DNA from: Paraburkholderia caffeinilytica
Lineage (GTDB): Bacteria; Pseudomonadota; Gammaproteobacteria; Burkholderiales; Burkholderiaceae
DNA: 64,000 nucleotides
Assembly: GCF_003368325.1 (NCBI RefSeq)
Contig: NZ_CP031467.1
Location: forward strand, 3,348,001 to 3,412,000
Direction: 5' to 3'
A program made the translations under genes and the position numbers. The stretch's first letter is position 1, and each line of letters opens with the position of its first letter. A model generated the notes under the pieces. That model was given only the letters and a program-made list of their open reading frames with translations. It did not search any database and was not told where the DNA came from. Positions 23,317-59,300 of the stretch are shown here, one piece after another.

Positions 23317-26300
23317 ATGCTACGGGGTGCTCGTGAGGGCATGTCGCGACTCGCCCAAAGAGAGGCGGCGCGGCAGGCGAATTCTTTTGACGCGGCGGCA
23401 AACGGCGTGGCGGAGCCTGGGCGGCCGTTATGGATGAGAGCGACCGCATGTGTCATGGCGGTGGTTATTTACCTGCTGCCAGGCGTGCTTACGCTGGACG
23501 AAGTGGCGCACGCCGCGCCAATCGTCGATCCTCGCGCACCCATTCCGTTTCAGCCGACCATCACGCAGACCAGCACAGGCGTGCCGGCGGTCAATATTGC
23601 CGCGCCGAACGCCAACGGTATCAGCGTCAATAGTTACCAGTCGTTCAATATCGACAGCAATGGGCTGGTACTGAACAACAGCCTCACATCCGGTACGCCG
23701 CTGCTGGGCGGCACGCTTGGCGCTAACCCGAATCTCGTCGGCCGCGCCGCGAGCGTGATCGTCAACCAGGTCACTACAACAGGGCCCGCTTCGACACTGG
23801 TCGGTCCGCTCGAAGTATTCGGTAGTGCGGCCTCGATCATCATCAGCAACCCGAATGGAGTATCCGTCAACGGACTTTCGTTGACCAATGCGACGGGGCT
23901 GGTCTTGACCACCGGCACGCCGCAATTCCTGACCGGTGTCGGTGGTACGTCGACGGACTTTGCCCATGCGGGCTCGCTTGCCTATAACGTGACGTCGGGC
24001 AATGTGTCGATCAGCGGCCCTGCCGGTGTCAATGGACCGGGCGCGGGCATCGAGGGCACGGTCGGCAATATCGATGTGATCGCGCAGACGATCAGTCTGA
24101 ACGCGCCATTGCGGGCAGATCAGCGTATTAACCTGGTTACTGGCAATCAGCTCGTGAGCCCGACGTCGTCAGACGCATCGGGCACGAACTATGGCACGGC
24201 GTCCAACGGCGCGGCCAATACGGCGGCTGCGATCGGTAATAACGCTGTTGCGATCGATGCGAGCCAGTATGGGTCGGTGACCAGCGGACAGATTTACATC
24301 ATGTCGACGGCTGCCGGTATGGGCGTTAATACGCTCGGGTCGCTTGCTGCGACTGCCGGCAATGTAAGCGTGACATCCAGCGGCGATATTTCTGCCGGCC
24401 AGACCTTCGCGAATCAGAATGTCGGTATCGCCAGCACGGGCAACACTACGATCACTGCTGCAGGCCTGGCGAACCAGAACTATACGGTCACCGCCGGCGG
24501 CGACATCAACGCATCCGGTTCCGTGTCGGCGGGCCAGAACGTTTCGCTGGGCGCAGGCGGTAACCTGAGCGCGACATCAACCGCAGCAAGTGGCAGTGCG
24601 AATCTCACCGCGGGCGGCTCGATGACGCTCGGGACAGTGTCTGCCCAATCCATCGCCCTGCAAACGGCTACGGGCGATCTCACGGTGAATTCCGCCGTGA
24701 GCGCTCCCGGCGTGATTTCCGCGAGCGCTGGCCGGGACCTCACGATCAATGGCGCGGTGCAGGGTGGCAGTACGGTCCAGTTGAGCGCTGCGCGCAGCGC
24801 AAGTGTGAACGGCCTGCTCTCCGGGGTAGACAACACCTCGGTGACAGCCACGACTGGCAACGCCAGTATCGCGGGCAATGTGCAGACCAACGGCACGTTC
24901 ACGGTGAGTGCTGCACAGGGCGCAACACTGGGCGGAACAGTTCAGGCACAAGGTCCCGTATCGGTGACCGCCCAGAACGGCTCGCTCACCGGCTCTGGCA
25001 ACATCGCTTCGTCCCTGGGTTCGGTGACGCTGGATGCGGGCGGCAACATCGGATTGACGGGTTCACTGCAAAGCGCGACGACGCTCAGTGCAACTGCCGG
25101 AGGAAATGCAAACCTTGGCGGCACGCTGACGGCTCCCGGTGCGATCAGCGTGACGACCGGGCAGGATGCGACGATCGGCGGCAATGCGACAAGTGGATCA
25201 ACCCTGACGGTGAACGCAGGCGGCAACGCCACGGTGCAGGGAGCGGCTGCATCGGTCGGCGATATGAGCCTGTCTGCCAATGGCGGCACGCTCGGCACAA
25301 CCGGCAGCGTGACGGCGATGGGTGCGTTGACTGCCAGCGGCCAGCAGGGCGTGAGTCTGGGCGGCACGGTCTACAGTCAGGGTAACGCGCAGATCAGCTC
25401 AAGCGCGGGAGGCGTCACCGTTGGCGGCACGCTGACGAGCCCTGGCACGATTGGCATCAGTGCTGCGCAGGACGCAACAGTCACCGGCCTTCTGCACAGC
25501 GGCCAGAGCGCGACCATCACCGCGACGCGGGACACCGGTCTGAATGGCGGGCTGGAGGTCGACGGCACCGGCAACGCTACGGTCAACGCTGGACGCGACA
25601 TCAATGGCACGGGCGCGGTAAGCGTCGCGAACGACGTCACCCTGTCGGCGGCCCGCAATATCGGCGTGTCGGGCGCTATCCAGACAGGCAACAACCTGAA
25701 CGCCACGGCGGGAGCCAATCTGTCCGTTGGCCCGACGACAACCGTTGGCGCCGAAACGCTTACGGCGACGGGTGGCAGCGTCACGCTTGCCGGTAACGCA
25801 CTGTCCGGCGGCAATATGGCGGTGACCGCTGGCACGAACGTGGGGGCACAGGGCACAGTCGAGAGCCTCGGCAATCTCAACGTCAATGCGCACAGCGGCA
25901 ATCTGAATACGGCGGGTGCCGTTCAGGCAGCCGGCACGGGCACGCTGAATGCCGGGCAGAACATGACCCTGGGCGGCGAGACGACCGTCACTGGCGATGC
26001 CACCCTGACGGGCAACAACATCACGACGCAGGGGTTGGCTGTCGGCGGCAATCTGATCGCCACTGCGGCGAACAGCCTCGACACGTCAGCCGGGCAACTG
26101 AATGCAGCATTCAGCGCAAACGCTCCCGCGTTGAGTGTAACGGGCAATGCGACGCTCAATGCCGCAAACGTGACGACCGCCAATGCTGCGATCGGGGGAA
26201 CGTATAGCGCAACGGGCACAACCAGCCTGACGACGGGCGGCACCGCCGCATACCAGCGCGATGCAACGCTCGCTGGCGGCACGGTGAACAACGTCGGCCG

Positions 26301-29300
26301 GCAGATGGCGGCCGGCAATCTGACTGTCTCGGGTTCGACGGTAACGAATCAGGGAACGCTCTCGGCGCTTCAGCAGATGACGGTCACCGCGGCGGCGCTG
26401 AATAACAGCGGCTCGATCTACGGTCCGACGACGAGCATCAACGTCGCAGGCAATACGACCAACACCGGCGGGCTGCTCGCGACCAGCACGCTTACGCTCA
26501 CCACGAATTCGCTGAACAACAGCAACGGGCTGATCTTCGCAGGCGATGTGAATCACCCGACCAGCGCGACCGGTGACACGAACGTCACGGTGAGCGGTGG
26601 TAACGGCAGTTTCAACAATACCAGCGGTCAGATTCTTGCGGCACGGAACCTGTCGCTCAGTCTGCTGAACCAGTCGGTCGACCCCTCGGCCAGCACCTTC
26701 GGGACCGTGAACGGTGGTAACGCGCTGAATCTTTGGGCGCAGGCAGTCAATAATTCGGGTACGTGGACGTTGCCGGGCACCGCTGTCACCGTAGCGGCAT
26801 CGCAGGGCATCAATAACACCGGGACGATCAACCAGGGGACGGGTACGCTCGCCCTGAACGGCGCCGTGAATAATTCCGGCACCGTCACCGTGCAGGATCT
26901 GACGATAAATGGCTCGCTGGCTAACCGGGCGAACGCGACCGTTCAGGCCAACGACGCACTGACGCTCAACGGCTCGGGAACGAACCTGGGGACTGTTGAA
27001 GCCGCCAACACGCTGACCATCAGTGGATCGAGCTACGACAATTCGAGCGGCACGACGAAGGCGGGCAACGCAAGCAGTCCGTCTGGTAGCGGGAATCTGA
27101 ATATCAATCTGAGCGGGGATCTCGGGAATACCGGCGGTACGCTGACGGCGACCAATGATCTCGGCATTACCGCGAACAACGTCAACAATTCCGGGGTCGC
27201 AGGCAGCAGCACGACGACCACGACGACCACGACGGTCAACAACACCGCGCTCGCGCTAGGACTGGTTGTGGGTACCGACACAATCGACATGGCGAGTAGC
27301 TATGGCCCCGGGGACCAGAAAACCTGCTGCAACCTCGCATCGTTTGGAAACAGCGTGACGCTTGCCGACGCGCTGTCGGCCGACGGCGTGACCGACACCA
27401 GTTCGATTCAGGCACAGCTCACGGCCCGCCGCTTCGCATGGGGACTCATCACCACCGCCAGCCCGCCGGTGAATTCGGGCAACATGGTCACGTTCGTGGA
27501 GATTCCGACAGTAACGGGTTCCGACAACAACGGTAACCCGATTACCCAGAACCTGTGGTTCGTCCAGACGCCCGCGAACGCGGGCACCGGCATCGCGACG
27601 ATCACGCTCGCGCTGCCGACTGCTACGGAGACGACCACCACCACGGGAGGCACGGCAGGTGCCAGTTCGGTGATTGCCGCCGGTCACAACGTTAGCATCA
27701 ACGCGAACAGCCTGAACAATCAGGCTGGCACCGTCAGCGCGGGAAACGATGCCAGCGTGAATGTGCAATCGCTGTCCAACGGCGGCCCAAGCTATACCTC
27801 GACGGTGACAGACACCGTCAGCACGGCGGCCATCAACAGCTTCCTCTCGCAGGCGCCGTCGACGATCTCACTATGGAGCAGTTTCAACAACGGCGGTGTC
27901 GGCTGCCCCAACAATCCGGGGGCGTGCATTGATCCGTCGGGCATCCAGCTTGCCGCGCCGGGTACGGTAACGCCGCTATCCACGTCGTCCTCAGTGACCG
28001 TGCAGGGGACGACCGGTCAGATCGTCGCCGGGCACGACCTCAACCTCTCGGGCGGCAATCTCACGAACGCCGGAGCGCTCGCTGCAGCAAACAACGTCAA
28101 CATCAATGCCGCGAGCTTCACGAATCAGGGCACGAATGTCGGGACGGTGACGACGACGGCCGGCTGTGCGTCGGGGTATTCGGCAGGCTGTTCAAGTCTG
28201 AATACCACGAACCCGAACTCGCAGTCCTATAGCTACCAGCAGACGAACAGCACGGTCACGGCGGGCAACAACCTGGTGATCGCGGCGAACTCGGTGAGCA
28301 ACACCTATGGCAATCTCGCCGCGGCAGGCACGGTCGCGATCGGAGGCGCCGGCACGACTGCCGCCAGCGTGACGCAGGCTGGAAGTGTCACGAATACGTC
28401 CGGGTCGATCACGGGAAACAATGTGCAGATCAACGCGGCCAGCGTCGTGAACACGGTCGCGGCACCCGTGCAGGTTCACCAGAACTACGGCAGCGCGTCG
28501 CCGTTCTCCGGATGCGGACAGAATTGCGAGGCGTACATCGACGTGCAGTCGGGCAATCCGGCAGCGATCACCGCCAACAGCAATCTGTCGATCACCAGCA
28601 ATACGTTCAGCAACACGGGTAGCCTCGTCACCGCGCTGAACAACGTGTCGATCAATGCGAGCGGTTCTGCGACGAGCAGCAACCAGTTGCTGAATGCCTA
28701 CTGGCATGCCAACCCGGGCGGCATCAGCGTATGGGGCTGCGCGAGCAATCCGTCGTTGTGCCAGACGCTTTACGGCAGCGCTTACTCGGCAAGCGACGTG
28801 CAGAACCCCGCTGGCCTCCCTTCGTCGGTGGGGATGTCCGACTTCGTGCCAGCGACCATCCAGGCCGGCAATACGCTGTCGGTGAATTCGCCGACGCTGA
28901 CCAACGCAGGCAATGTCATCGGTACGACGGTGGTGCTGAGCGGTTCGCAACTGGTCAACGGCCTGACCAACCCGCACGTCTATACCCCGCCGCCTGTCGT
29001 GTCGAATCAGGTGATTTCGCTTGGGCCTCCGGCGGTACCCGGCAGTGCGGCGACGACCGTTAACAGCGCGGGGCTTGTCACTAACCTCGCCGGCCAACCG
29101 GTTTCGGTGACTGGCACTGCTGGCGTGCCTTCGGGTGTGCCAGTCGGTGTGCAGACGGTGGGCAAGCCTGTCGCGCCGACCGCAATCAGCGCCAATAGCC
29201 CGGCAGGCAGCACGGTGAAAACCATCAGCGGCCAGACGTTGACGGTCAGTTACCTCACGAATAATCCCGCCGCGCAGGTCATGGGGGATATCTCGCCAGC

Positions 29301-31740
29301 CGGTCTTCTCGCGAAACTGCCTACCAACCTGCGACCGGCCAACGTGCCGTTCTATTACGACCCGTATACCGAGGACCAGCAGATCGAGCAGGCCGCGTTG
29401 ACGGCGACAGGTAAGAGCAGTTTCTACAGCACGACAGGTGCGACGGACAGCACGAGCCAGACGTCCATCGCGAACCAGGACAAGAGCGCGCTGTATGGGG
29501 CAGCGCTCCAGTATGCGGAGCAGAACAACATTGCGCTGGGCACCCAGTTGAGTCAGGCGCAACTGGCGCTGATCAATGCGCCGATGCTCTGGTATACGGA
29601 GGAAACCGTCCCCGAGCCGGGATGCACGGCAACCGGTAGCGGTGCGTGCCCGACAGTGCAGACGCTGATGCCCGAAGTGCTGCTGCCCGCGAACTATGCG
29701 CAGGTCGGCGCGGACGGCGAAATCAGCGGCAGGAACGTTTCGCTTAATTACAGCAACAGCATTCTCAACACCGGAAGCATCAGCGCGAGTGGCACGCTGA
29801 GCGTGACCACCGGATCGCTGACGAACGAAACGCGCTCGACGAACATCGGCACGATTTACCAGAACGTGCAGGATGTCGGTCTCCAGCAGACCACCGGCAC
29901 GGTGGTGCAGCAGGGCGGCTTCATGTCGGCGGCGGACTATGACATGAATGCGCAGGCCATCGATAACATCGGTGGCCAGATACAGCAGATCAATGCCAAC
30001 GGCAGCGTGAATCAGGCGGCCACCGCGCAACTGCTCTCGAACCTGAAGAGCCAGTTGGGCACGAGCTTCACACAGAGCACGGTGAGTAACAACCTCACCA
30101 CGTCGGTGGTAGGTGCTCCCTCGTCGTGGGACAACCTGTTCATGACGCTGGATATCGCTGTCATTGCCATCGTGGCCTCCATGGTCGTGAGCCCGGTTGC
30201 CGGCGCCATGCTGTCCAGCGCAATGAATGGCATGAATAATGATCAGGCTTTCAGCTTTGGCAACATGGTCAAGGCGGGAGCGGTCGCGTACCTGACTGAA
30301 GGCGTTGACGCGGGACTCGGACTGGATGACTTCAGCAGCGTTGGCTCGAACCTGGTGTCCTCAGATGCGACGGTGACGCTTTCGAATCTTGGTAACACTG
30401 CGCTGCAGATAGGGGAGCAGAGCGTAGTCAACGCTGCAATCTCGACTGCGATTGAAGGTGGCAGTTTCGGCAATGCGCTGAAGAACAACATCGTGAGCGA
30501 TCTCGCAGCCGTCGGCGCGAATGCAATCGGCAGTGAGTTTGGCCCAACCGGTAGTGACCCGAACTATGCCGCAAGCGTTGCAAGTCACGCGGTGCTCGGA
30601 TGTGCGGCCAGTGCAGCGCGAGGTACCGGGTGCGCAGGGGGGGCCATTGGCGGGGCCGTGTCTGCCGGGATGAACCCGATCATTGACGCGAACGGCAATA
30701 TCCCGCCTGCTGCCCTGGCGGCGATCGAGACGCTGGTGAGCGGCAGTGTCGCCGGGGCGCTCGGATTCAATGTTCAGGGCGCGATCACGGCCGCGCAGAA
30801 CGAGACGCTGAACAACTGGCTGAATCACGTCACGCTCTTACCGGGGCAAAAGTCAGAGGCGCAGCAGGCCGATGAGGCGCTAGCGAAATGTGATAGCGCA
30901 AAAGCCGATGAATGCGCGACGGCGGCCACGTTAATGCAGAAATCAGGCGCGAATGACCAGGCGCTGGCCACGGCGTGTCAGTCGCCCGGCTCGCTGGCAT
31001 GCGCCTACCAGAAGACCCTGGCCTATCTGGCGGGCAACAACGTTTCTACTGTCAACGGCGTGACGGTTGCTACGGCGGCGCCGCAGCCGACGTACACAGC
31101 ACCCAGCCAGGCAGCGGCCATGCTTGAGAATGCGCTTGCGGGCCCGTTGCCGGCGATTCTGGCCGGAGCGACGTATGAACTCGGAGGGTCGACTCAGACT
31201 GCGTACTACCTGTCCACACTGGGCGTAGCTGCGGGCGGCATTGCAGCAGGTGCGGTTGGACTCGGTGGATCCAAGACGGTTAATATAATTTCTGAGGCCA
31301 CAGACAGTGCAGTTGGGGTACCCGTTTCGACGGCAAAAAATCCGTTTAGTCCTGTGCAGCAGGTTGATACATTTGGTAACGAAATTTATTACCGTACAAT
31401 GTCTGAACAGGATTTCGAATATTTGCAACAAACGGGTCAATTGCCGCCAACTACCGAGACGTCAATTTCACCAGTCTTGTCATATTCATCGAAGTACAAC
31501 GGCGCAACTGTTCAGTTCACAATGGCACCGGGAACTTCAGCTGCGCTTCAACAAATCGGCATTGCTGCTAATCTTCCCGCGGCTATTGAGTTCCCAGATA
31601 TGTCGACACAGGTGGGCAGTTGGATGCAGACTAATGTACGCTTCAAAGTTGAAGGAGGCCAGATGACTACTCAACTTGGCCAGGGCGCAGGAGTAAATAT
31701 TTTTAATAAAAATATAATTCAATTTGGCAAGATTCCTTGA
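23317..31740 (+). CDS. cdiA: CdiA-type contact-dependent inhibition / two-partner-secretion exoprotein (2807 aa)
   Basis: An extended N-terminal region (to about residue 67) ends at a signal-peptide-like VIYLLPGVLTLDEVAHAA. Then comes the TPS secretion domain with PNANGISVNSYQSFNIDSNGLVLNNS and NPNGVSVNGL. Residues ~260-1900 are repetitive Gly/Ala/Ser/Thr/Asn beta-helix repeats of filamentous-haemagglutinin type. A DUF637-like section lies near ~2390-2490 (ASHAVLGCAASAARGTGCAGGAIGGAVSAG). The last ~150 residues differ in base composition (AT-rich from about 31275) and form the variable toxin: YYRTMSEQDFEYLQQTGQLPPTTETSISP ... FKVEGGQMTTQLGQGAGVNIFNKNIIQF. The toxin activity is not identified; similar C-termini end Rhs/CdiA proteins. 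The product is exported by a TpsB protein; the nearest is 4 kb downstream. Confidence 0.92.
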   Translation: MLRGAREGMSRLAQREAARQANSFDAAANGVAEPGRPLWMRATACVMAVVIYLLPGVLTLDEVAHAAPIVDPRAPIPFQPTITQTSTGVPAVNIAAPNANGISVNSYQSFNIDSNGLVLNNSLTSGTPLLGGTLGANPNLVGRAASVIVNQVTTTGPASTLVGPLEVFGSAASIIISNPNGVSVNGLSLTNATGLVLTTGTPQFLTGVGGTSTDFAHAGSLAYNVTSGNVSISGPAGVNGPGAGIEGTVGNIDVIAQTISLNAPLRADQRINLVTGNQLVSPTSSDASGTNYGTASNGAANTAAAIGNNAVAIDASQYGSVTSGQIYIMSTAAGMGVNTLGSLAATAGNVSVTSSGDISAGQTFANQNVGIASTGNTTITAAGLANQNYTVTAGGDINASGSVSAGQNVSLGAGGNLSATSTAASGSANLTAGGSMTLGTVSAQSIALQTATGDLTVNSAVSAPGVISASAGRDLTINGAVQGGSTVQLSAARSASVNGLLSGVDNTSVTATTGNASIAGNVQTNGTFTVSAAQGATLGGTVQAQGPVSVTAQNGSLTGSGNIASSLGSVTLDAGGNIGLTGSLQSATTLSATAGGNANLGGTLTAPGAISVTTGQDATIGGNATSGSTLTVNAGGNATVQGAAASVGDMSLSANGGTLGTTGSVTAMGALTASGQQGVSLGGTVYSQGNAQISSSAGGVTVGGTLTSPGTIGISAAQDATVTGLLHSGQSATITATRDTGLNGGLEVDGTGNATVNAGRDINGTGAVSVANDVTLSAARNIGVSGAIQTGNNLNATAGANLSVGPTTTVGAETLTATGGSVTLAGNALSGGNMAVTAGTNVGAQGTVESLGNLNVNAHSGNLNTAGAVQAAGTGTLNAGQNMTLGGETTVTGDATLTGNNITTQGLAVGGNLIATAANSLDTSAGQLNAAFSANAPALSVTGNATLNAANVTTANAAIGGTYSATGTTSLTTGGTAAYQRDATLAGGTVNNVGRQMAAGNLTVSGSTVTNQGTLSALQQMTVTAAALNNSGSIYGPTTSINVAGNTTNTGGLLATSTLTLTTNSLNNSNGLIFAGDVNHPTSATGDTNVTVSGGNGSFNNTSGQILAARNLSLSLLNQSVDPSASTFGTVNGGNALNLWAQAVNNSGTWTLPGTAVTVAASQGINNTGTINQGTGTLALNGAVNNSGTVTVQDLTINGSLANRANATVQANDALTLNGSGTNLGTVEAANTLTISGSSYDNSSGTTKAGNASSPSGSGNLNINLSGDLGNTGGTLTATNDLGITANNVNNSGVAGSSTTTTTTTTVNNTALALGLVVGTDTIDMASSYGPGDQKTCCNLASFGNSVTLADALSADGVTDTSSIQAQLTARRFAWGLITTASPPVNSGNMVTFVEIPTVTGSDNNGNPITQNLWFVQTPANAGTGIATITLALPTATETTTTTGGTAGASSVIAAGHNVSINANSLNNQAGTVSAGNDASVNVQSLSNGGPSYTSTVTDTVSTAAINSFLSQAPSTISLWSSFNNGGVGCPNNPGACIDPSGIQLAAPGTVTPLSTSSSVTVQGTTGQIVAGHDLNLSGGNLTNAGALAAANNVNINAASFTNQGTNVGTVTTTAGCASGYSAGCSSLNTTNPNSQSYSYQQTNSTVTAGNNLVIAANSVSNTYGNLAAAGTVAIGGAGTTAASVTQAGSVTNTSGSITGNNVQINAASVVNTVAAPVQVHQNYGSASPFSGCGQNCEAYIDVQSGNPAAITANSNLSITSNTFSNTGSLVTALNNVSINASGSATSSNQLLNAYWHANPGGISVWGCASNPSLCQTLYGSAYSASDVQNPAGLPSSVGMSDFVPATIQAGNTLSVNSPTLTNAGNVIGTTVVLSGSQLVNGLTNPHVYTPPPVVSNQVISLGPPAVPGSAATTVNSAGLVTNLAGQPVSVTGTAGVPSGVPVGVQTVGKPVAPTAISANSPAGSTVKTISGQTLTVSYLTNNPAAQVMGDISPAGLLAKLPTNLRPANVPFYYDPYTEDQQIEQAALTATGKSSFYSTTGATDSTSQTSIANQDKSALYGAALQYAEQNNIALGTQLSQAQLALINAPMLWYTEETVPEPGCTATGSGACPTVQTLMPEVLLPANYAQVGADGEISGRNVSLNYSNSILNTGSISASGTLSVTTGSLTNETRSTNIGTIYQNVQDVGLQQTTGTVVQQGGFMSAADYDMNAQAIDNIGGQIQQINANGSVNQAATAQLLSNLKSQLGTSFTQSTVSNNLTTSVVGAPSSWDNLFMTLDIAVIAIVASMVVSPVAGAMLSSAMNGMNNDQAFSFGNMVKAGAVAYLTEGVDAGLGLDDFSSVGSNLVSSDATVTLSNLGNTALQIGEQSVVNAAISTAIEGGSFGNALKNNIVSDLAAVGANAIGSEFGPTGSDPNYAASVASHAVLGCAASAARGTGCAGGAIGGAVSAGMNPIIDANGNIPPAALAAIETLVSGSVAGALGFNVQGAITAAQNETLNNWLNHVTLLPGQKSEAQQADEALAKCDSAKADECATAATLMQKSGANDQALATACQSPGSLACAYQKTLAYLAGNNVSTVNGVTVATAAPQPTYTAPSQAAAMLENALAGPLPAILAGATYELGGSTQTAYYLSTLGVAAGGIAAGAVGLGGSKTVNIISEATDSAVGVPVSTAKNPFSPVQQVDTFGNEIYYRTMSEQDFEYLQQTGQLPPTTETSISPVLSYSSKYNGATVQFTMAPGTSAALQQIGIAANLPAAIEFPDMSTQVGSWMQTNVRFKVEGGQMTTQLGQGAGVNIFNKNIIQFGKIP

Positions 31741-31751
31741 GGGAGATGGGC

Positions 31752-32225
31752 ATGTTGTTGCGATTGAATGAAGCTGGGTTTACCATGAAATTGGTATTCC
31801 GGTTTGAAGATGAATTGCGAGCGAATCCTCATCGAGTTGCTCTGAGTCAGGCTCTGACTCTAAATGCTTCAAAGCCGAATGTAGGGCTAAAAGGGCTTCA
31901 TGGTCTGCTCGGTTCGCCGGAGTGGTGGGAGAGTATTCAGGCGGGTAAAATGCCATTGCTCTTTATTTCAGGTGTCGTTCAGCGTATATATTTCTCTGGC
32001 CAGGATGAGGGAGGCGCCAACAATACGCTTGATCTAAAGCTCGACGATGGATCAGTAAGGGCGGTAGGCATCTATGTCAACAATAGTGAGAATCTAAAAC
32101 TTTTTCATATTGGCTGTCGAGTGAGTATCGTCTATGCACTAGATGCGTTGAAGCTGCAACCTGCTATCGATGGTGGAGTGAACTATTCTAAGATTGCGTT
32201 GGAGATGGCTGTTTCAATCGATTAG
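31752..32225 (+). CDS. cdiI: Candidate CdiI immunity protein for the adjacent CdiA toxin (157 aa)
   Basis: The gene begins 11 bases after the cdiA stop with the site GGGAGA; an alternative ATG two codons upstream is possible. It is a soluble protein (MLLRLNEAGFTMKLVFRFEDELRANPHRV...) without signal peptide or membrane helix, as expected for a cytoplasmic immunity protein. It shares the low GC of the toxin end. A stretch LLFISGVVQRIYFSGQDEGGANNTLDLKLDDGSVRAVGIYVNN resembles a small beta-barrel. No named immunity family is recognised; assignment rests on position and size. Confidence 0.72.
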   Translation: MLLRLNEAGFTMKLVFRFEDELRANPHRVALSQALTLNASKPNVGLKGLHGLLGSPEWWESIQAGKMPLLFISGVVQRIYFSGQDEGGANNTLDLKLDDGSVRAVGIYVNNSENLKLFHIGCRVSIVYALDALKLQPAIDGGVNYSKIALEMAVSID

Positions 32226-32252
32226 CAGGAAGGAATGTGTCGACATCACTGA

Positions 32253-32672
32253 TTTGTTGCTACAGAAAGCGCAGGCGCTCTTGCTGCCGATGCGGGAAGT
32301 GTTAGGAATGTTAATCCTACGGGGCCGTTGCAGAACTGCACGAACTGCGTAGCGGTTGTCGACAATTTTCTTACTACCGGGAATCCAGCTAGTGCATTGC
32401 CTGGAGCGACACCCGTGCCATTTAATCAACTCGGGCAGATGTATGGGACTACATTTAGTGGTTGGACGACACAGCAGAATATCGAGTTCTCTTTGCTCGC
32501 TGGTGGCAATGGGACGCGAGCCGTTGTCTATGGAACGGACGGGGTCACTGGGCACGTATGGAATGCTGTCGTGCAAAATGGCAGCGTGAACTATATCGAT
32601 GGTCAAATTGGTGGTAGTGGCGCGGCCAACTTCCAGAACTTCTCGCACTTTCAATTTGGAATATTGCCATGA
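32253..32672 (+). pseudogene. Displaced papain-like toxin fragment (orphan CdiA-CT)
   Basis: The frame is open from 32253 to 32672 but has no credible start codon or ribosome-binding site; it reads AADAGSVRNVNPTGPLQNCTNCVAVVDNFLTTGNPASALP. It matches the papain-fold (Tox-PL-type) deamidase/protease toxins of polymorphic-toxin systems: Cys in NCTNC (32346), His in GHVWNAV (32553) and Asp in YIDGQ (32598) form the expected Cys-His-Asp triad. It ends FQNFSHFQFGILP. Only the C-terminal toxin module is present, 27 bases after the candidate immunity gene, so it looks like an old toxin tip left behind when a new one was acquired. Its stop overlaps the next start (ATGA). Confidence 0.78.
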
Positions 32673-32935
32673 CGCTGGATCTTGCCACTGCGAAGAGGAT
32701 GGCGCTTGAGTATCTCGCGGAACAACAGATCAAACCCGGAGGGGTGCCTTATTCCATTGTTGATTCGCGAGTGGTGGAAGACGATGAGGGATGGTATTTC
32801 CCTTGCCAGTCGGTTGAGTTCTTGGCGACCGGAGATATGAACGTTTCTCTCGTGGGAAACTGGCCGATCTTTGTTAGTCGAGACGGTCGCTATGTTGGCC
32901 CGTGCCGACCTGAGAAATGGCTGCGTCGCAATTGA
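32669..32935 (+). CDS. Imm35/YrhB-like immunity protein (88 aa)
   Basis: Translationally coupled (ATGA overlap) to the orphan papain-like toxin fragment. The sequence MTLDLATAKRMALEYLAEQQ...YSIVDSRVVEDDEGWYFPCQSVEFLATGDMNVSLVGNWPIFVSRDGRYVGP fits the YrhB/Imm35 pattern (GW-F/Y-F, then a LxGNxPIfVxRxdG core), a family often paired with papain-fold toxins. The intact frame suggests selection to keep protection against sibling cells that still deploy the toxin. Confidence 0.78.
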   Translation: MTLDLATAKRMALEYLAEQQIKPGGVPYSIVDSRVVEDDEGWYFPCQSVEFLATGDMNVSLVGNWPIFVSRDGRYVGPCRPEKWLRRN

Positions 32936-33690
32936 CTTGATGAAGGTCGGTTCAAGGGACGGGGTAGGCGAGCGCCGGTTATTGCCCGGACGGCAGTGAT
33001 GAGACGAGGCAGGTCGAGCTTATCGTTTTGATTTGCTGGGCATGGGATTGTCGCGCTGGCAGGATGGGAGCTTGTCCATAGCGTTGGAATATCGGTACGT
33101 CAATTCATGGTGCTGTTCCCGTAGCGTAGATTCGTAGCGACGGGAAATGGAATGGCCTTTCTGCGTATAGAGACCAAAGCAGATTGGTACTGCATATTGA
33201 TGGGGTGCGTTGGTACGCCATACGCGTGCGTTGTGCGAACTTGATCGCATCGTCCGTTTTTCAGTAAGCAAACTAAAAGTAGGGATACTTCCCGGGGAAA
33301 TTGAAGTATGCGAGTGCGAACGGACCTTTGCGCGAGTCTTCGATACGCGCGGGCAATGACATACAAGCCTCGTCAGGAGATTGCAGGGAGGCATCAGCCT
33401 TCACGCTGGCCGGTGCCGCTTGCAGCGATGATTGCACTGATGCCGCTCCTGCTGCTATTCGCAGCGGCCATTTTCTGTCTGGTTCTCAGGCTGATACTGC
33501 CTGTCCATGCCGTTCCCCATTAGCACGGCCAATTCCCTTACGTTTCGCTCTTCGTCAGATCCTTTTGCTAGCCGTTGCCACATTCGCCGGAGGCGGCCGC
33601 GCCGTGTTCGGCTGCGGTGGGGCCGCGACTAACGGAGCCGGATCTGGTGGTTGCCATGCGGGTACTACTTTCTGATTTCAACTGATTCCG
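32936..33690. other. Gap between the immunity gene and the second TpsA gene
   Basis: No confident gene in ~750 bases. A minus-strand frame near 33020-33394 has no recognisable domain. In Burkholderia bcp/cdi loci a small bcpO-type gene occupies this slot. A low-confidence candidate (33308-33523) is listed separately. Confidence 0.35.
33308..33523 (+). CDS. Possible small single-helix membrane protein (71 aa, doubtful)
   Basis: The C-terminal half has one strong hydrophobic helix (WPVPLAAMIALMPLLLLFAAAIFCLVLRLILP). The start is uncertain (ATG at 33308 or 33356; no good ribosome-binding site at either). It lies where Burkholderia bcp loci keep the small bcpO gene. No lipobox is seen and no homology is claimed. 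Confidence 0.28.
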   Translation: MRVRTDLCASLRYARAMTYKPRQEIAGRHQPSRWPVPLAAMIALMPLLLLFAAAIFCLVLRLILPVHAVPH

Positions 33691-35757
33691 ATGAATTTCC
33701 TTGCCCACAGCCGGGCCAAACATCCGGCCGTACCGAAGGCGCTATGTCTGCTCGCTTCGATAGTCTCTGCACATGCTGCGGCTGCTGCAGGCATCGTCGC
33801 CGACGGCGGCACTGCGACCGCGGTCTCGACCGGTGCCAACGGCCACCAGACGGTAAATGTCGCCCCTACAATCGGCGGCGTCTCGAACAACACCTACACC
33901 TCATTTAACGTATCGAAAGCTGGCGCCGATCTGAACAACGTCGGCATCAACGCACGCACGATCGTTAATCAGGTGACCAGCACGAACCCCTCGCTGATCC
34001 AGGGCGACATCAGCGTACTGGGTCCGCGCGCCAACGTGATCCTTGCGAACCCGAACGGCATCACGATCGACGGCGGAAGCTTCGTCAACGCCGGCCACGT
34101 TGTCCTCTCGACCGGTCAGGTGAGTTTCGACGATCTCGTACCTGCACCCGGCGTGACCCAACGCAACGTTATGCTAACCACCAACCGCGGCGCAATCACC
34201 ATCGGTCCCGGCGGCCTGAGCGGCACACTCGTCAATCTCGACCTGATCGCCAAATAGCTCTCGGTGAATGGTCCCGTAAAAAACGACTTCACGACCTCGA
34301 CGGGCGGCGTGCGAGCAATCATCGGCGATAGCACGAATACCTACGACACCAGCCTGTCCCCCAGCGACAACAACCACGACTGGCTTGTCAGCACGACGTC
34401 CCCCGGCACGACGAACTCAGCATTGGCCGTCGATATCACCGCACTCGGCGGACTGACCGGCGGCCGCGTCCAACTCATCGTCACTGACAAAGGCGCGGGC
34501 GTTCGCAGTCTCGGCGCGATCTACGCAAGCGCAGGCGACGTCATCGTGTCGTCGCTCGGCGACATCGGCGTAGTCGACGGATCGATCAAGGCGGAAAACA
34601 ACATCCAGATCACGACGCCCGGTGCGTTCTCCTCGCAGGGCGCACAGATGTCCGCGGCAAACGGCATAACGCTCAACGCGGACGGCATCACGCTAGTCGA
34701 CGATGCCACTGGCGGTTCAACGCTCAGCGCGCAAAACGGCGCAGTCAAGCTGACCAGTACCGGCGACATCTCCAGCACCGGCAGCCTGATCCAGGCCGGC
34801 GCGATTAGCGCGAGCGGCGCAGCGATCGGCGGCGATGTGACCTTGAGCGCCACCGGCAACATCCTGAATCGTTCGAGCGCGGCGAACCTGGGTGTCGTCT
34901 TCGCGGCGAATGGACAAACGTCGCTAAGCGCGCAAGGGAACATCATCAACGAGAACGCCCGCATCCTGGCAAACGACAAAACCAGCGTGACCGCTCAAGG
35001 CGACATTTCCAACATCATCGATCACACCGACGGCACGAACGGCGGTCAGCCGGTCGCGTACTCGCGTACCGGTGGCAGTTTTGTTTTCTTCACGCATAAC
35101 ACCAGCGGCTTCGACGTCGATTACGGCACCGTCGCACAACCGGGCCAACTGGCCTATATCGCGTCGACCGGTGGTTCGGTCACCGTCTCGGGAAGAAACG
35201 TCACCAACTCCGGTGGCCTGATCCAATCGAACAAGGGAAACATATCGATTACCGCGCAGCAGGCCTTTACCAACGCCGCGGTGTTCTCGGGACAGGCCAG
35301 CTATTCACGCAGTTGCTGGATATTCTGTCATGCGAGCGCATCGAGCAATGTGATGCCCAATGGCGGCACGATCCAGTCGGGCGCGGACATTGCGATTTCC
35401 GCGGGGACCGTCGCGCGCAATATCGGGGGTAACGTTTTTGCAGCTGGCAATCTCAACGTGTCGGCGCCCGTGACATACGCACAGGGCGTAACAGGTTACT
35501 CGGCGATCAATCAGGACCGCGGCTTCAAGGCATTTTTCGGCAGCACGTGGGCGCAGATCATTGCGAGCGATGTTGGCGGAGGCTTCACGGCCAACGGCTC
35601 GGTTTCGCTGGTCGGCGGCGCCGTTATCGATGGCGGCTACATCAACGGCAGCAACGGCGTCTCCGCGAGCGGCGGCATAACGACAGTCCGCGCGCCCGCG
35701 ACGACGCCTGTTCAGATCGGCCAGCATCTCGGCACGACGACGTGGTGGTGGCATTGA
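33691..35757 (+). pseudogene. Second TpsA-type filamentous haemagglutinin, interrupted by an amber codon
   Basis: One continuous frame of 689 codons is broken only by TAG at 34255-34257. Before it lie an Ala-rich signal peptide (ALCLLASIVSAHAAAAAG) and the TPS domain (NVAPTIGGVSNNTYTSFNVSKAGADLNN; ILANPNGITIDGGSFVNAGHVVLSTG). After it the same domain continues without shift (LSVNGPVKNDFTTSTGGVRAIIG), followed by beta-helix repeats, a short Cys-containing loop (SRSCWIFCHASAS) and the end TTTWWWH. TpsA relatives typically have Gln at the interrupted site (IAxQLSVNG), and one C-to-T change makes CAG into TAG. The gene overlaps the TpsB start (TGATG). It is too short for a long adhesin and lacks a toxin tip. 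Confidence 0.85.
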
Positions 35758-37568
35758 TGCAGTCCGTATCGACCAGGCCGCGCCTGAAGTGCGCGGGGAT
35801 AGTGCGCGCAGTTACACTCGTCTTCGTGCATAGCGTCGCCATCCACGCGCAGACACCACCGCCGCCCGCCCAACCTCTACCGTTAGCGCGTCCGGTTCAG
35901 GACCCCGCGCAGTTGATCATCGATCAGCAGCGCGAGCAGGCGACCCAGCGGCAACTGAATCAGCCGCCCGCATCGATTGCGCTGCCGGAACCGGCTTCGC
36001 AGGGTTCGCTCGACGTCCCTCCCGACACACCGGTCGATCAGATCGTCGAGACGGGCCCCGCCTTTGCGGTCAACCGCATCACAGTGGACGGCAATACGGT
36101 GCTCGCGCAAAAGCGCATCGACGCCATCGTGACGCCGTTCGTCGGTCACGCGCTGGGTTCGCATCGTCTGAATGTGCTGCTCAAGCGACTGACTGACGCA
36201 TTCGTATCGAACGGCTATATCACGACGCGAGCGTTCCTTGGTCCGCAGAATCTCGAGTCGGGCGTATTGAACATTAAAGTTCAGGTAGGCCGCATTGCGG
36301 GATATACGTTGAACGGTAAGCCGTTAGGACATCGGCTCAAGAAAGACGAACAGTCGGCAGGTGGCGGACTCCTGACCGATGCGGGGTCGGAGTGGGCATT
36401 TCCAGCGGCGCCAGGCGATGCGCTCAACCTTGGAGACATTGATCAAGGGGTGTCCCAGATCAACCGGCTGCGACGTAATCAGGCTGAAATCCAGATTCTG
36501 CCGGGTCAATCGCCGGGGGATTCCATTGTCGCGATCAACAACCGGCCCGGCGACCGCCTTTACTACACCTTGGGTGTCGACAATTACGGCAGCGCTGCGA
36601 CTGGAATAACCCGCTACCGGGCGGGTGTGGAAGCGGACAACCTGATCGGCTTGCAGGAGTCGATCAGTCTGAATTTTCTCGACAGCGAGGACAGCAATGC
36701 GTTCGTCGGTTCGTTTGCGATGCCGTATGGTCGTCACACATTCAGCTATACGTTTTCCGATTCCGAATATCAACAGCTGGTCGGCACGAGCGCGCTGATG
36801 TACGGGCGCACGCTGAGCCATATTCTCGGCTGGAACTACACGCTTGATCGCACGCAGGCCGGCATTGCGAATCTCGACGCCACGTTGTCGTGGCGACGTA
36901 CCGACCGCGAAATCAACGACATTGAATTGAATCCGCAGCACATTGCGGTACTTCGCGTCGGCGGCAACTGGTTGCGCAAGTTCGTGCTGAACGACGCCCC
37001 CGGCAATGTTACGCTCGATGCTGGTGTCTCAGAGGGGTTGCCGTGGTTGGAAGCGGACCATGACGCACATGGAATAGCCCGTGACGGCGCGCATAGCCAG
37101 TTCACCAAGCTGGATGCGACGGCATCGTTCACTGTTCCTCTTCCCAAGTTAGGCAGGGCGGCGCTGGTCTATCGCGGCACCTTGAGCGGTCAGTTCACGA
37201 ACGTCGCGCTCTATGGTTCCGAGCAGTTGTATCTCGGGGGCATGGATACGGTTCGCGGTTTTCGCTCGGGCGAGATCTCGGGCGACCGAGGCCTGTACTC
37301 GCGCAACGAGGTCGCATGGGTGAATACACCCGCATGGCACGACGGTCGAATCGAACCGTACATTTTTATCGATGCCGGAAAAGCGAGCCTCATTGCGCTC
37401 CCGGGATTTCCGACGCTGGCCGGTGTTGGGGCGGGGTTGCGCGGGCAGTGGTTATGGCATCGGCAAATGCTGTCGGCGGAGGCGCTGGTTGGACGGGCAC
37501 TTACGCAGCCGGTAGCGCTTGGCCCCAAGGCGACGCTCGTCCTTGCGACACTCAACTGGAATTACTAG
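35757..37568 (+). CDS. TpsB-type outer-membrane transporter (ShlB/FhaC/CdiB family, 603 aa)
   Basis: The ATG overlaps the preceding stop, giving a signal peptide ending at VAIHAQ, a Pro-rich linker and an N-terminal helix (QLIIDQQREQATQRQLNQ). Two POTRA domains follow (FAVNRITVDGNTVLAQKRIDAIVTPFVGHALGSHRLNVLLKRLTDAFVSNGYITTRAFL; VQVGRIAGYTLNG) and then the 16-strand beta-barrel region with the conserved VRGF motif (MDTVRGFRSGE) and a terminal LATLNWNY ending in an aromatic residue. It secretes TpsA proteins. It is the only TpsB in the window, so it may serve both the damaged TpsA next to it and the CdiA upstream. Confidence 0.94.
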   Translation: MQSVSTRPRLKCAGIVRAVTLVFVHSVAIHAQTPPPPAQPLPLARPVQDPAQLIIDQQREQATQRQLNQPPASIALPEPASQGSLDVPPDTPVDQIVETGPAFAVNRITVDGNTVLAQKRIDAIVTPFVGHALGSHRLNVLLKRLTDAFVSNGYITTRAFLGPQNLESGVLNIKVQVGRIAGYTLNGKPLGHRLKKDEQSAGGGLLTDAGSEWAFPAAPGDALNLGDIDQGVSQINRLRRNQAEIQILPGQSPGDSIVAINNRPGDRLYYTLGVDNYGSAATGITRYRAGVEADNLIGLQESISLNFLDSEDSNAFVGSFAMPYGRHTFSYTFSDSEYQQLVGTSALMYGRTLSHILGWNYTLDRTQAGIANLDATLSWRRTDREINDIELNPQHIAVLRVGGNWLRKFVLNDAPGNVTLDAGVSEGLPWLEADHDAHGIARDGAHSQFTKLDATASFTVPLPKLGRAALVYRGTLSGQFTNVALYGSEQLYLGGMDTVRGFRSGEISGDRGLYSRNEVAWVNTPAWHDGRIEPYIFIDAGKASLIALPGFPTLAGVGAGLRGQWLWHRQMLSAEALVGRALTQPVALGPKATLVLATLNWNY

Positions 37569-56336: not shown

Positions 56337-59300
56337 GTGGCCCACTCATTCAGACGGTCGGAAAAATTGGCATCTAACGGAATTATCCGCATTCGCGGCG
56401 CGCGCCAGCACAACCTGAAGAACGTCGATCTCGATGTGCGAACCGGCGAAATGACGGTTGTCACTGGGCCGTCCGGTTCCGGCAAGTCGAGCCTCGTGTT
56501 CGACACGTTGTACGCCGAAGGGCAGCGGCGCTACGTCGAAACCTTCAGCGCCTACGCCCGGCAGTTTCTCGACCGCATGGACCGGCCGCAAGTCGACCGG
56601 GTCGACGGCGTACCGCCTGCCATCGCGATCGACCAGACCAATCCGGTGCGCAGTTCGCGCTCCACCGTCGGCACCATGACGGAACTCAACGATCACCTGA
56701 AGCTGCTCTACGCGCGCGCGGCCGAGCTGTTCGATCGCAAGACCGTCCTGCAGGTGCGCCACGACACGCCCGAAACGATCTATGCCGAGCTGCTCGGGCG
56801 CACCGCGGAGCATGATCCGCGGCTGGTCGTCACGTTTCCGGTCGAGTTGCCGGACACCGCGTCCGAGCAGGAAGTGGAGCAATGGCTCTCCGCGAGCGGT
56901 TACACGCGTGTGCAGGCGCAGCGCGAAGTCGATTCGCCCACCGGCAAGCGCAAGCTGCTCGACGTGGTGGCCGACCGCTTCCGTTTGAGCTCGGTCGACA
57001 AGCCGCGGGTGGTCGAAGCTATTGAAGCATCGCTCAAGCGTGGTGGCGGCCGCGTCAATATTTACGTGCTGCCTGCCGCGCCAGAAGCGTCAGACGCGCC
57101 GGAAGCCAAAGAAGCCGAGCCGCAAATCTGGCGTTTCTCGACCGGTCTGCACAGCCCCGAGAGCGACCTGCGCTACGCGGATCCGCAGCCGGCGCTGTTC
57201 TCGTTCAACTCGGCCTACGGCGCATGCGAAGTTTGCCGCGGTTTCGGCCGCGTGATCGGCGTCGACCTCGGGCTGGTGATTCCCGACGCGCGCAAGACGC
57301 TGCGCGACGGCGCGATCAAGCCGATGCAAACGCCGGCGTGGAAAGAGTGCCAGGACGACCTGATGCGTTACGCGGCGAAAGCCGATATTCGCCGCGGTAC
57401 GCCTTGGGGCGAGCTGACGGATGCCGAACGCGACTGGGTCATCAACGGCTCGCCGGACTGGAACGGCAAGTGGCAAAGCCATTGGTACGGCGTCAAACGC
57501 TTCTTCGAATATCTCGAATCGAAGGCGTACAAGATGCACATCCGCGTGTTGCTGTCGAAGTACCGCAGCTATACGCCGTGCGAAACCTGTGGCGGCGCGC
57601 GTCTGAAAACGGAATCGCTGTTGTGGCGCCTCGGCAGCAAGCAGAATGCGGACGAGGTGCTGGCGGCCGGGAAGCGCTTCATGCCGCGCGGTGTCGAGTG
57701 GACGCGTGCGCAACTCGAGTCCTTGCCGGGCCTGACCGTGCACGATCTGATGCTGATGCCGATCGAACGCATCCGGCGTTTCTTCGACGAGATCAGCCTG
57801 CCCAGCGCCTTGCTCGACGACGCACTCAAGCTGTTGCTCGCCGAAGTGCGCACGCGCCTCAAATATCTGTGCGACGTTGGCCTCGGGTATCTGACGCTCG
57901 ACCGGCAAAGCCGCACGCTGTCGGGCGGCGAAGTGCAGCGGATCAACCTGACCACGGCGCTCGGCACGTCGCTGACCAAAACGCTGTTCGTGCTCGACGA
58001 GCCGAGCATCGGCCTGCATCCGCGCGATCTGAACCGGATCGTCGAGGCAATGCACCGGCTGCGCGACGCGGGCAATACGCTGGTGGTGGTCGAGCACGAT
58101 CCTTCGGTGATGCTCGCGGCGGATCGTCTGATCGACATGGGCCCGGGGCCAGGCGAGCGCGGCGGCTCGATCATTTACGACGGCGCGCCGGAGGCAATCC
58201 GCTCGTCGGGCACGCTGACCGGAGAGTACCTCGGTGGGCACCGGCATGTGGCGGACGCGGCGCACTGGTCGCAGCGTCCGGTGGATGACAACACGCCGCG
58301 CATCCTGCTCGAGGGCGCGACCGAACACAATCTGCGCGACGTCACCGTCGAGATTCCGCTGCAGCGGCTCGTCTGCGTGACGGGCGTGTCGGGCTCCGGC
58401 AAGTCCACCTTGCTGCAGGATGTTTTGTATCCGGCCATGGCGCGCCACTTCGGTCTCGCCACCGAATCGCCCGGTGCGTTCAGGAACCTGACGGGCGCCG
58501 ATCAGGTCACCGACGTCGTATTCGTCGACCAGTCGCCGATCGGCAAGACCGCGCGCTCGAATCCAGCCAGCTATGTGGGCGCTTTCGACGAAATCCGCAA
58601 GCTCTTTGCCAAGGCGCCGCTCGCGCAGCAACGCGGTTACGGCCCCGGCATGTTCAGCTTCAACTCCGGTGAAGGGCGCTGCCCGACTTGCGGCGGCTCG
58701 GGCTTCGAACACATCGAAATGCAGTTCCTGAGCGACGTCTACCTGCGCTGCCCGGATTGCGATGGGCGCCGCTATCGCGCGGAACTGCTCGAAGTCAAAA
58801 TCGAGCGTGGCGAGTCGCCGCGTGCTTTGAGCATTGCCGACGTGCTGGAACTGACGGTAAGCGAAGCCACGGCCTACTTCGCCAGGGATGCCGAAGTGTT
58901 GCGCGTGCTGCAGCCCATCGTCGACGTGGGGCTCGAATACGTGAAGCTCGGCCAGCCGGTGCCCACGTTGTCCGGCGGCGAAGCGCAGCGGCTCAAGCTG
59001 GCCGGTTTCCTCGCGGAATCGGCACAGGCGCGCACCGCGCGCAGCGCGAAGCAGCCGGTCGCAAAACGCCTGTTCATGTTCGACGAGCCGACCACCGGCC
59101 TGCATTTCGACGACATCGCCAAGCTGATGCAGGCGTTCGGCAAACTGCTGGCAAGCGGACATTCGCTGATCGTGATCGAACACAATCTCGACGTGATCCG
59201 TGCGGCCGACTGGCTGATCGACCTCGGTCCCGAAGGGGGTGACGGTGGTGGCAGGGTGCTCTGCGCGGGGACGCCGGAAGACGTCAAGCGCTGTCCGGAA

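What the first reader, a model, noticed from the sequence alone, without database searches (positions are those of the whole stretch)
23317..32935. CdiA locus with an active-looking toxin/immunity pair and a displaced second pair
The last ~460 bases of cdiA and its candidate immunity gene are AT-rich against a GC-rich body, the sign of a swapped toxin tip. Directly behind lies a start-less papain-like toxin tip (Cys-His-Asp readable) and an Imm35/YrhB-like immunity gene overlapping it by ATGA. The arrangement fits the toxin-tip replacement model: a new toxin displaces the old one downstream, and the old immunity gene is kept. The front toxin (FGNEIYYRTMSEQ ... FNKNIIQFGK) has no activity I can name.
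Basis: partly seen in the sequence, partly recalled or inferred. Interest (0 to 1): 0.75.

Follow-up and report, generated by a model that had tools for sequence, protein, structure and literature searches.

The report
CdiA locus with RhsP2-like RNA-toxin tip
A soil bacterium's contact-killing protein carries a swapped-in toxin tip related to one known to jam bacterial RNA by attaching ADP-ribose, with its antidote gene, and behind it lies an older-looking, detached toxin and antidote pair that is still joined to the same kind of protein in a sister species.

Summary
The window (genus Paraburkholderia) holds cdiA (23317-31740), two toxin/immunity pairs, a small interrupted TPS gene and cdiB (35547-37568). 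Its neighbour is a relative of the immunity protein RhsI2 (E 1.4e-31). The R-Y-E triad and the key RNA-binding lysine are kept, but only 1 of 6 known RNA-binding basic residues is, so the RNA target is inferred. The front cassette is 88% identical in P. bannensis on a different CdiA. Its ends (31297-32272) coincide with a short direct repeat encoding AT(D/E)SA. The rear pair is Gln_amidase plus Imm35. It is about 87% identical to a pair whose toxin is still fused to CdiA in a sister species; in two other genomes the toxin is broken while Imm35 is whole. This is the known orphan-module model. Not found in my limited literature searches: an RhsP2-type ART on a CdiA, and an AT(N/D)(S/T) seam between entry and toxin domains. 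New member of a known kind, moderately interesting.

The parts
23317..31740 (+). cdiA, 2807 aa, TpsA-type effector
   Evidence: TPS domain aa 80-359, DUF6862 aa 2513-2576
30853..31044 (+). DUF6862 segment, start of the entry-like domain that follows AAQNETLNN; shared with G006, G081, G049, G041, G110, which carry other tips
31297..31311 (+). left seam, encodes ATDSA; left end of the 88% match to P. bannensis
31339..31737 (+). front toxin tip, RhsP2-like ADP-ribosyltransferase; R2693 (31393), Y2727 (31495), K2777 (31645), E2779 (31651) correspond to RhsP2 R1490, Y1524, K1574, E1576
31752..32225 (+). RhsI2-like immunity gene (start 31752 or 31785)
32250..32273 (+). right seam: stop codon, then FVATESA; diverged copy of the 18-mer TGATTTGTTGCCACAAAC found behind immunity genes of other cdiA loci
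32259..32672 (+). rear, detached papain-fold tip (Gln_amidase); no start codon before a TTG at 32328
32669..32935 (+). Imm35 immunity gene
33691..35757 (+). small second TPS protein gene, interrupted by an in-frame stop
   Evidence: one frame of 752 aa in G138
35547..37568 (+). cdiB (ShlB/FhaC/HecB with POTRA domains)

Best explanation
This is a contact-dependent growth inhibition (CDI) locus. CdiB exports CdiA, and CdiA delivers its last ~130 residues into a touching cell. That tip is an ADP-ribosyltransferase of the RhsP2 family. It probably uses NAD+ to put ADP-ribose on 2'-OH groups of structured RNAs and so stops translation, while the adjacent RhsI2-like protein binds the tip and blocks its active site in the producer. 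The tip and its immunity gene came in together as a ~960-bp AT-rich cassette, recombining at a short sequence that encodes AT(D/E/N)S between CdiA's entry-like domain and the toxin. The papain-fold tip and its Imm35 gene behind it are a detached older (or separately acquired) cassette of the same kind. That tip is not part of a secreted protein here; Imm35 can still protect against kin that carry it. Shown here: homology, catalytic residues, cassette borders, the fused counterpart in a sister species. Inferred: delivery, activity, RNA as target, protection, the recombination step.
For: Tip vs RhsP2: phmmer 1.7e-30; profile of six sequences 2e-42, the only PDB match up to E 5. Immunity vs RhsI2: 1.4e-31 over residues 1-143 of the 144-residue chain. 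R, Y, E and K1574 equivalents are invariant in 6 of 6 aligned sequences, the window's and five relatives. Cassette 88% in P. bannensis with ends at the repeat. Pairwise dN/dS against P. bannensis: tip 0.10, immunity 0.14. Rear tip fused in G138; Imm35 full-length in 4 of 4 close copies (83% identity or more), while the toxin is frameshifted in G064 and cut to 72 aa in G068. cdiB present. Order A-I-orphan-B agrees with the Burkholderia layout in PMC9086364 (passages).
Against: Only 1 of 6 RhsP2 RNA-binding basic residues is conserved (K1574); K1567, whose charge reversal stops RhsP2 modifying two sRNAs, is Met here, so the target could differ. The AlphaFold2 model is poor (pLDDT 53), so its match to 7rt7 adds little and the surface charge could not be judged. 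In G138 the fused papain tip reads GTYSAG, without the AT motif. 14 of 29 C-termini lack the motif. G081, the genome with the closest cdiB among those compared (92% DNA), has neither pair, so descent of the rear pair in this locus is not shown. The small TPS gene beside cdiB is interrupted. No activity was measured.
Confidence: 0.8

Rival explanations
1. The tip is an active ADP-ribosyltransferase of the RhsP2 family but with another substrate, a protein such as EF-Tu or a narrower RNA set.
For: 5 of 6 RNA-binding basic residues of RhsP2 are absent (alignment, residues). TreTu, another Rhs tip, appears weakly in the fold search (E 3.4); that TreTu is an ART acting on EF-Tu is recalled.
Against: By sequence only RhsP2 is found, even with a profile. 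The lysine whose reversal abolishes RNA binding is kept, and an Arg lies two residues before it.
Confidence: 0.3
2. The rear pair was never the tip of this cdiA; it arrived already detached, for example together with a donor array.
For: The entry-like domain in the window is the DUF6862 type, while the papain tip in G138, and the cdiA in front of the displaced one in G064, have a different entry domain. G081 lacks the papain pair.
Against: Entry domain and tip recombine separately in this genus, so the mismatch is expected either way.
Confidence: 0.4
3. The locus is a decaying relic: neither tip is delivered.
For: The small TPS gene between the orphan pair and cdiB is interrupted by a stop; the rear tip has no start codon before a TTG.
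Against: The cdiA frame (2807 aa), front immunity gene and cdiB are open, with low pairwise dN/dS for front tip and immunity (0.10, 0.14, against P. bannensis) and cdiB (0.06, against G081).
Confidence: 0.1

Closest known systems
RhsP2/RhsI2 of Pseudomonas aeruginosa (PDB 7rt7; PMC12340436, PMC11833690, passages)
   Same: Homologous toxin and homologous immunity in the same order; R-Y-E triad and K1574 kept.
   Different: Carrier is a CdiA with TPS domain instead of a type VI Rhs protein; 5 of 6 RNA-surface basic residues not kept.
Orphan cdiA-CT/cdiI modules (Poole et al. 2011, PMC3150448, passages)
   Same: Detached tip lacking normal initiation signals, immunity gene intact, sequence motif at both module ends, fused in other species.
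   Different: Ends are at AT(D/E/N)S between entry-like domain and toxin, not at VENN upstream of the entry domain.
Burkholderia cdiAIB / bcpAIOB loci (PMC9086364, passages)
   Same: cdiA first, cdiB last, orphan modules between cdiI and cdiB.
   Different: No (E/Q)LYN seen at the tip boundary; NETLNN, then DUF6862, then the AT motif; extra small TPS gene before cdiB.
Papain-fold toxin Gln_amidase with Imm35 (PF15644, PF15567; PMC3482391, passages)
   Same: Rear pair matches both families above cut-off; that paper lists Imm35 with Tox-PL1, which I take from the Pfam name 'papain fold toxin 1' to be this family.
   Different: Detached here. Whether it cuts or deamidates, and what, is open; papain-like Cpe1 toxins of CDI and T6SS that cut GyrB/ParE (PMC12136450, passages) were not compared.

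Membership tests
RhsP2-type RNA ADP-ribosyltransferase | sequence homology over the toxin domain | tested here: met
RhsP2-type RNA ADP-ribosyltransferase | R-Y-E catalytic triad | tested here: met
   R2693, Y2727, E2779
RhsP2-type RNA ADP-ribosyltransferase | basic RNA-binding surface (R1563, K1564, K1567, K1574, K1579, K1580) | tested here: inconclusive
   1 of 6 residues kept (K1574 = K2777); V, G, M and a gap at the others (alignment). Whether other residues make up the surface could not be judged: model too poor
RhsP2-type RNA ADP-ribosyltransferase | 2'-OH ADP-ribosylation of dsRNA | not testable with these tools
   needs enzyme assay
RhsP2-type RNA ADP-ribosyltransferase | RhsI2-like immunity gene directly downstream | tested here: met
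CDI (CdiA/CdiB/CdiI) | TPS-domain effector with a ShlB/FhaC-type transporter gene in the locus | tested here: met
CDI (CdiA/CdiB/CdiI) | polymorphic C-terminus exchanged between related bodies | tested here: met
CDI (CdiA/CdiB/CdiI) | contact-dependent inhibition relieved by CdiI | not testable with these tools
   needs competition assay
orphan cdiA-CT/cdiI module | tip lacking normal initiation signals, fused to a full cdiA elsewhere, immunity gene intact | tested here: met
   a weak TTG start at 32328 is not excluded
orphan cdiA-CT/cdiI module | module begins at the demarcation motif of its cdiA class (VENN, (E/Q)LYN or other) | tested here: inconclusive
   no VENN; the detached copies in the window and G064 begin at AT(E/D)SA, but the fused copy in G138 reads GTYSAG
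Gln_amidase / Imm35 | Pfam score above curated cut-off | tested here: met
   50.1 vs 24.1 bits; 41.6 vs 27.5 bits

The most novel reading that the evidence does not exclude
In Paraburkholderia CdiA proteins the toxin and its immunity gene move without the entry domain, at a second seam marked by AT(N/D/E/S)(S/T/N). One carrier with a fixed import route can thus change payloads, including one from the type VI Rhs world (an RNA ADP-ribosyltransferase). The seam stands as a short direct repeat on both sides of the front cassette, so natural rearrangement between tips, as Poole et al. proposed for VENN, may run through it.
Probability: 0.45. Interest if true: 0.55.

Novelty: new member of a known kind. 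Interest (0 to 1): 0.42.

Why it matters
It adds a predicted RNA-modifying ADP-ribosyltransferase to the cargo of contact-dependent growth inhibition, a combination that my term searches of the held library did not turn up (most hits seen as listings only). It gives a natural set of sister genomes in which the same payload is fused, displaced, broken, or reduced to little more than the immunity gene, and it points to a DNA seam at which the exchange happens. That makes the tip-replacement model directly testable in an environmental genus.

Tried and rejected
Pfam and NCBIfam gave nothing for the front tip beyond sub-threshold DUF7852 / BC_2427 hits (E ~0.07) and nothing for its immunity protein; the identification came only from the PDB sequence search. 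AlphaFold2 with three rows (window, P. bannensis, Millisia) gave a poor model. The fold search found 7rt7 (E 7e-7, TM 0.47), but the model is too weak to count as independent proof. A viral-contig scan matched 45 stretches, none of which encodes a relative. The idea that the 18-mer TGATTTGTTGCCACAAAC might be a recombinase site was dropped: its core codes VATN, and VAT(N/D/S) also stands in frame inside other junctions, so homology-driven exchange explains it. The window holds only a diverged copy, not the exact 18-mer (0 hits in G000). DUF6862 was first taken for the pretoxin domain; positions show it lies after NETLNN, in the entry-like domain.

Not shown: that the rear pair descends from this cdiA. 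Limits of counts: 30 C-termini were collapsed to 29, the motif was chosen after seeing the sequences, and presence, not position, was scored (some hits, as in L069, L039 and L022, do not lie at a recognisable junction). In one search, 26 of 30 loci gave a readable C-terminus. In one search, 7 of 8 DUF6862 loci gave a sequence.

Full report
WHAT IS THERE. cdiA is one frame of 2807 aa (23317-31740) with a TPS secretion domain and, near the end, DUF6862. Behind it, all on the + strand, come an immunity frame (31752-32225), a frame with no start codon before a TTG at 32328 (32253-32672), a gene overlapping it by ATGA (32669-32935), a small second TPS gene interrupted by a stop (33691-35757) and cdiB (35547-37568; ShlB 1.3e-77, POTRA). 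The last 444 bases of cdiA are 45.0% G+C against 62.6% for the body; none of 60,438 equally long windows elsewhere in the 64 kb is as low as the front cassette.

THE FRONT TOXIN. Pfam and NCBIfam do not name it. A search of PDB sequences does: RhsP2, chain 7rt7_A, E 1.7e-30 over residues 2-130 of the 133-aa tip, and the neighbour gene matches RhsI2, chain 7rt7_D, E 1.4e-31. A profile of six sequences (the window's and five relatives) finds only RhsP2 up to E 5. RhsP2's residues R1490, Y1524, E1576 and K1574 (PMC12340436, outline, passages and one section seen) fall on R2693, Y2727, E2779 and K2777; all four are invariant in the six aligned sequences. The residue numbering of the chain is my mapping (chain position + 1459) and fits all nine residues that the passages name. 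Of the six basic residues of the RNA-binding surface only K1574 is kept; R1563, K1564 and K1567 are V, G and M, and K1579/K1580 lie in a gap. K1567E abolishes modification of two sRNAs in RhsP2, so the RNA target is likely but not secure. In RhsP2 the product is 2'-OH ADP-ribosylated dsRNA, and RhsI2 occludes the active site (PMC11833690, passages).

WHERE THE TOXIN OCCURS. 2 of 144 genomes of the genus, 4 of 398 of the family sample, 3 of 398 of the phylum sample with the profile, 3 loci in the GTDB contig scan (P. bannensis, a Sphingomonas MAG cut by its contig end, Millisia brevis), 2 of 72,556 plasmids, 1 of 50,697 phage records (a Salmonella-labelled contig), none in the viral-contig scan. 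These samples overlap: the window's genome is counted in the three genome samples, P. bannensis in genus, family and contig scan. Carriers: CdiA in the window and P. bannensis (5034-aa frame, hemagglutinin domain DUF637); a detached, interrupted copy with an RhsI2-like gene on a Cronobacter condimenti plasmid, ~3.4 kb from an annotated VENN pre-toxin gene; Rhs proteins in Millisia brevis and G674 (RHS_repeat 5.5e-80 and 2.2e-15), and in Burkholderia savannae by its annotation and a marginal Pfam match (2.3e-5); Rhs-like by eye in G227 and the Salmonella-labelled contig. The carriers of the Sphingomonas MAG copy and of a partial copy in G771 were not determined. So one toxin family travels on both type V and type VI carriers. 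That RhsP2-type tips sit on CdiA was not found in term searches of the held library. Of the four papers holding both RhsP2 and CdiA I saw passages of one (PMC9990079); the original RhsP2 paper was not seen, so it may hold this.

CASSETTE BORDERS. P. bannensis matches the window at 88% over 31297-32272; elsewhere the two cdiA bodies are alike only in short pieces of ~69-71%. In G006 the body matches the window (77%) up to 31280 or (second copy, 74%) 31311, and in G081 (70%) up to 31306; both carry other tips. The ends coincide with a direct repeat: GCCACAGACAGTGCA (31297, ATDSA) and GCTACAGAAAGCGCA (32259, ATESA), 12 of 15 identical. The right one is preceded by TGA TTT GTT. The form TGATTTGTTGCCACAAAC occurs 5 times in 4 of 144 genus genomes, each time at a cdiA locus; its reversed control occurs 0 times. 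Its core codes VATN, and VAT(N/D/S) stands in frame inside the junctions of G006, G064 and G121. Among 29 non-redundant C-termini from fetched loci (not a random sample), 15 hold AT(N/D/S/E)(S/T/N) against a shuffle mean of 3.3 and a maximum of 11 in 2000 shuffles; 14 do not; the pattern was chosen after looking, and its position was not scored. One search found 4 pairs (from 30 C-termini) that share a toxin but not the entry domain: two have AT(S/N) in both members, two in one member only; the BLAST alignments begin 3 to 63 residues before it, so the seam's place is read by eye. CdiAs with the DUF6862-type entry-like domain (7 of 144 genomes) carry different tips. One of those is Tox-REase-7 (G006, 7.8e-10); the G064 tip, on another entry domain, is Tox-HDC-like (2.4e-4, just over the cut-off). 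PMC9086364 lists VENN, (E/Q)LYN and other pretoxin motifs, not this one (passages). That entry and toxin domains are modular units is known (PMC11630599, passages).

THE REAR PAIR. Gln_amidase (6.7e-13) and Imm35 (1.4e-10). In G138 the same tip is the fused end of a 2801-aa CdiA, DNA 86.7% over 32262-32976. In G064 it lies displaced behind another front tip, begins ATDSAG after a stop and is frameshifted; in G068 only 72 aa of the tip remain; Imm35 is full-length in these three genomes and in the window's. In total 5 of 144 genus genomes have a relative of the tip (the fifth, G006, at 48%), and 11 of 144 an Imm35 relative at E 1e-3. The window's copy against G138: dN/dS 0.095 for the tip, 0.30 for Imm35 (NG86, one pair each). 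The constraint on the tip may predate its detachment. cdiB and the small TPS gene are syntenic in G138, G064 and G081; in G049 and G006 the fetched stretch ends within the small TPS gene, which matches. Upstream flanks gave no match over 150 bp in the six genomes compared, except a stretch at the cdiA start in G081.

HOW IT MOST LIKELY WORKS. CDI delivery of a ~130-aa ADP-ribosyltransferase tip, neutralised at home by the RhsI2-like protein; exchange of tip plus immunity at the AT(D/E/N)S seam, leaving older cassettes behind; retention of old immunity genes because kin still carry the old tip. This is the model of Poole et al. 2011 (PMC3150448, passages), in which module ends lie at VENN, with a different seam position. 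No rearrangement event was observed; exchange is inferred from the comparison of genomes.

VERDICT. Observation confirmed, interpretation supported, front toxin now named. New member of a known kind, with two points of interest: the RhsP2-type tip on CdiA and the entry/toxin seam.

Noticed in passing
window 33691-35757: Small TPS protein gene between the orphan pair and cdiB is interrupted by an in-frame stop, whereas G138 has one frame of 752 aa there.
   Followed up: partly
L004 and L096, behind the toxin: Rhs-borne RhsP2-like toxins of Millisia brevis and G674 are followed by a different, HEAT-repeat-looking immunity candidate instead of an RhsI2-like one (by eye).
   Followed up: no
L098 (Psychrobacter plasmid pA46P5) 3374-3850: An RhsI2-like immunity gene (34% identity) stands on a small plasmid; no annotated toxin among the 8 features of the stretch shown.
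   Followed up: no
L049 (G068:C1:331877-332352): Imm35 with only the last 72 aa of the papain tip, about 74 kb from the cdiA match of that contig: an immunity gene kept almost alone.
   Followed up: partly
L046 (G006:C1:437500-452500): cdiA locus with stacked orphan tips, including a second copy of the DUF6862-type segment and a papain-like tip behind the VATN seam.
   Followed up: partly
window 56337-62261: 1974-aa protein with ABC, UvrA-interaction (2 stretches) and UvrA DNA-binding domains; looks like a doubled UvrA-like ATPase.
   Followed up: no
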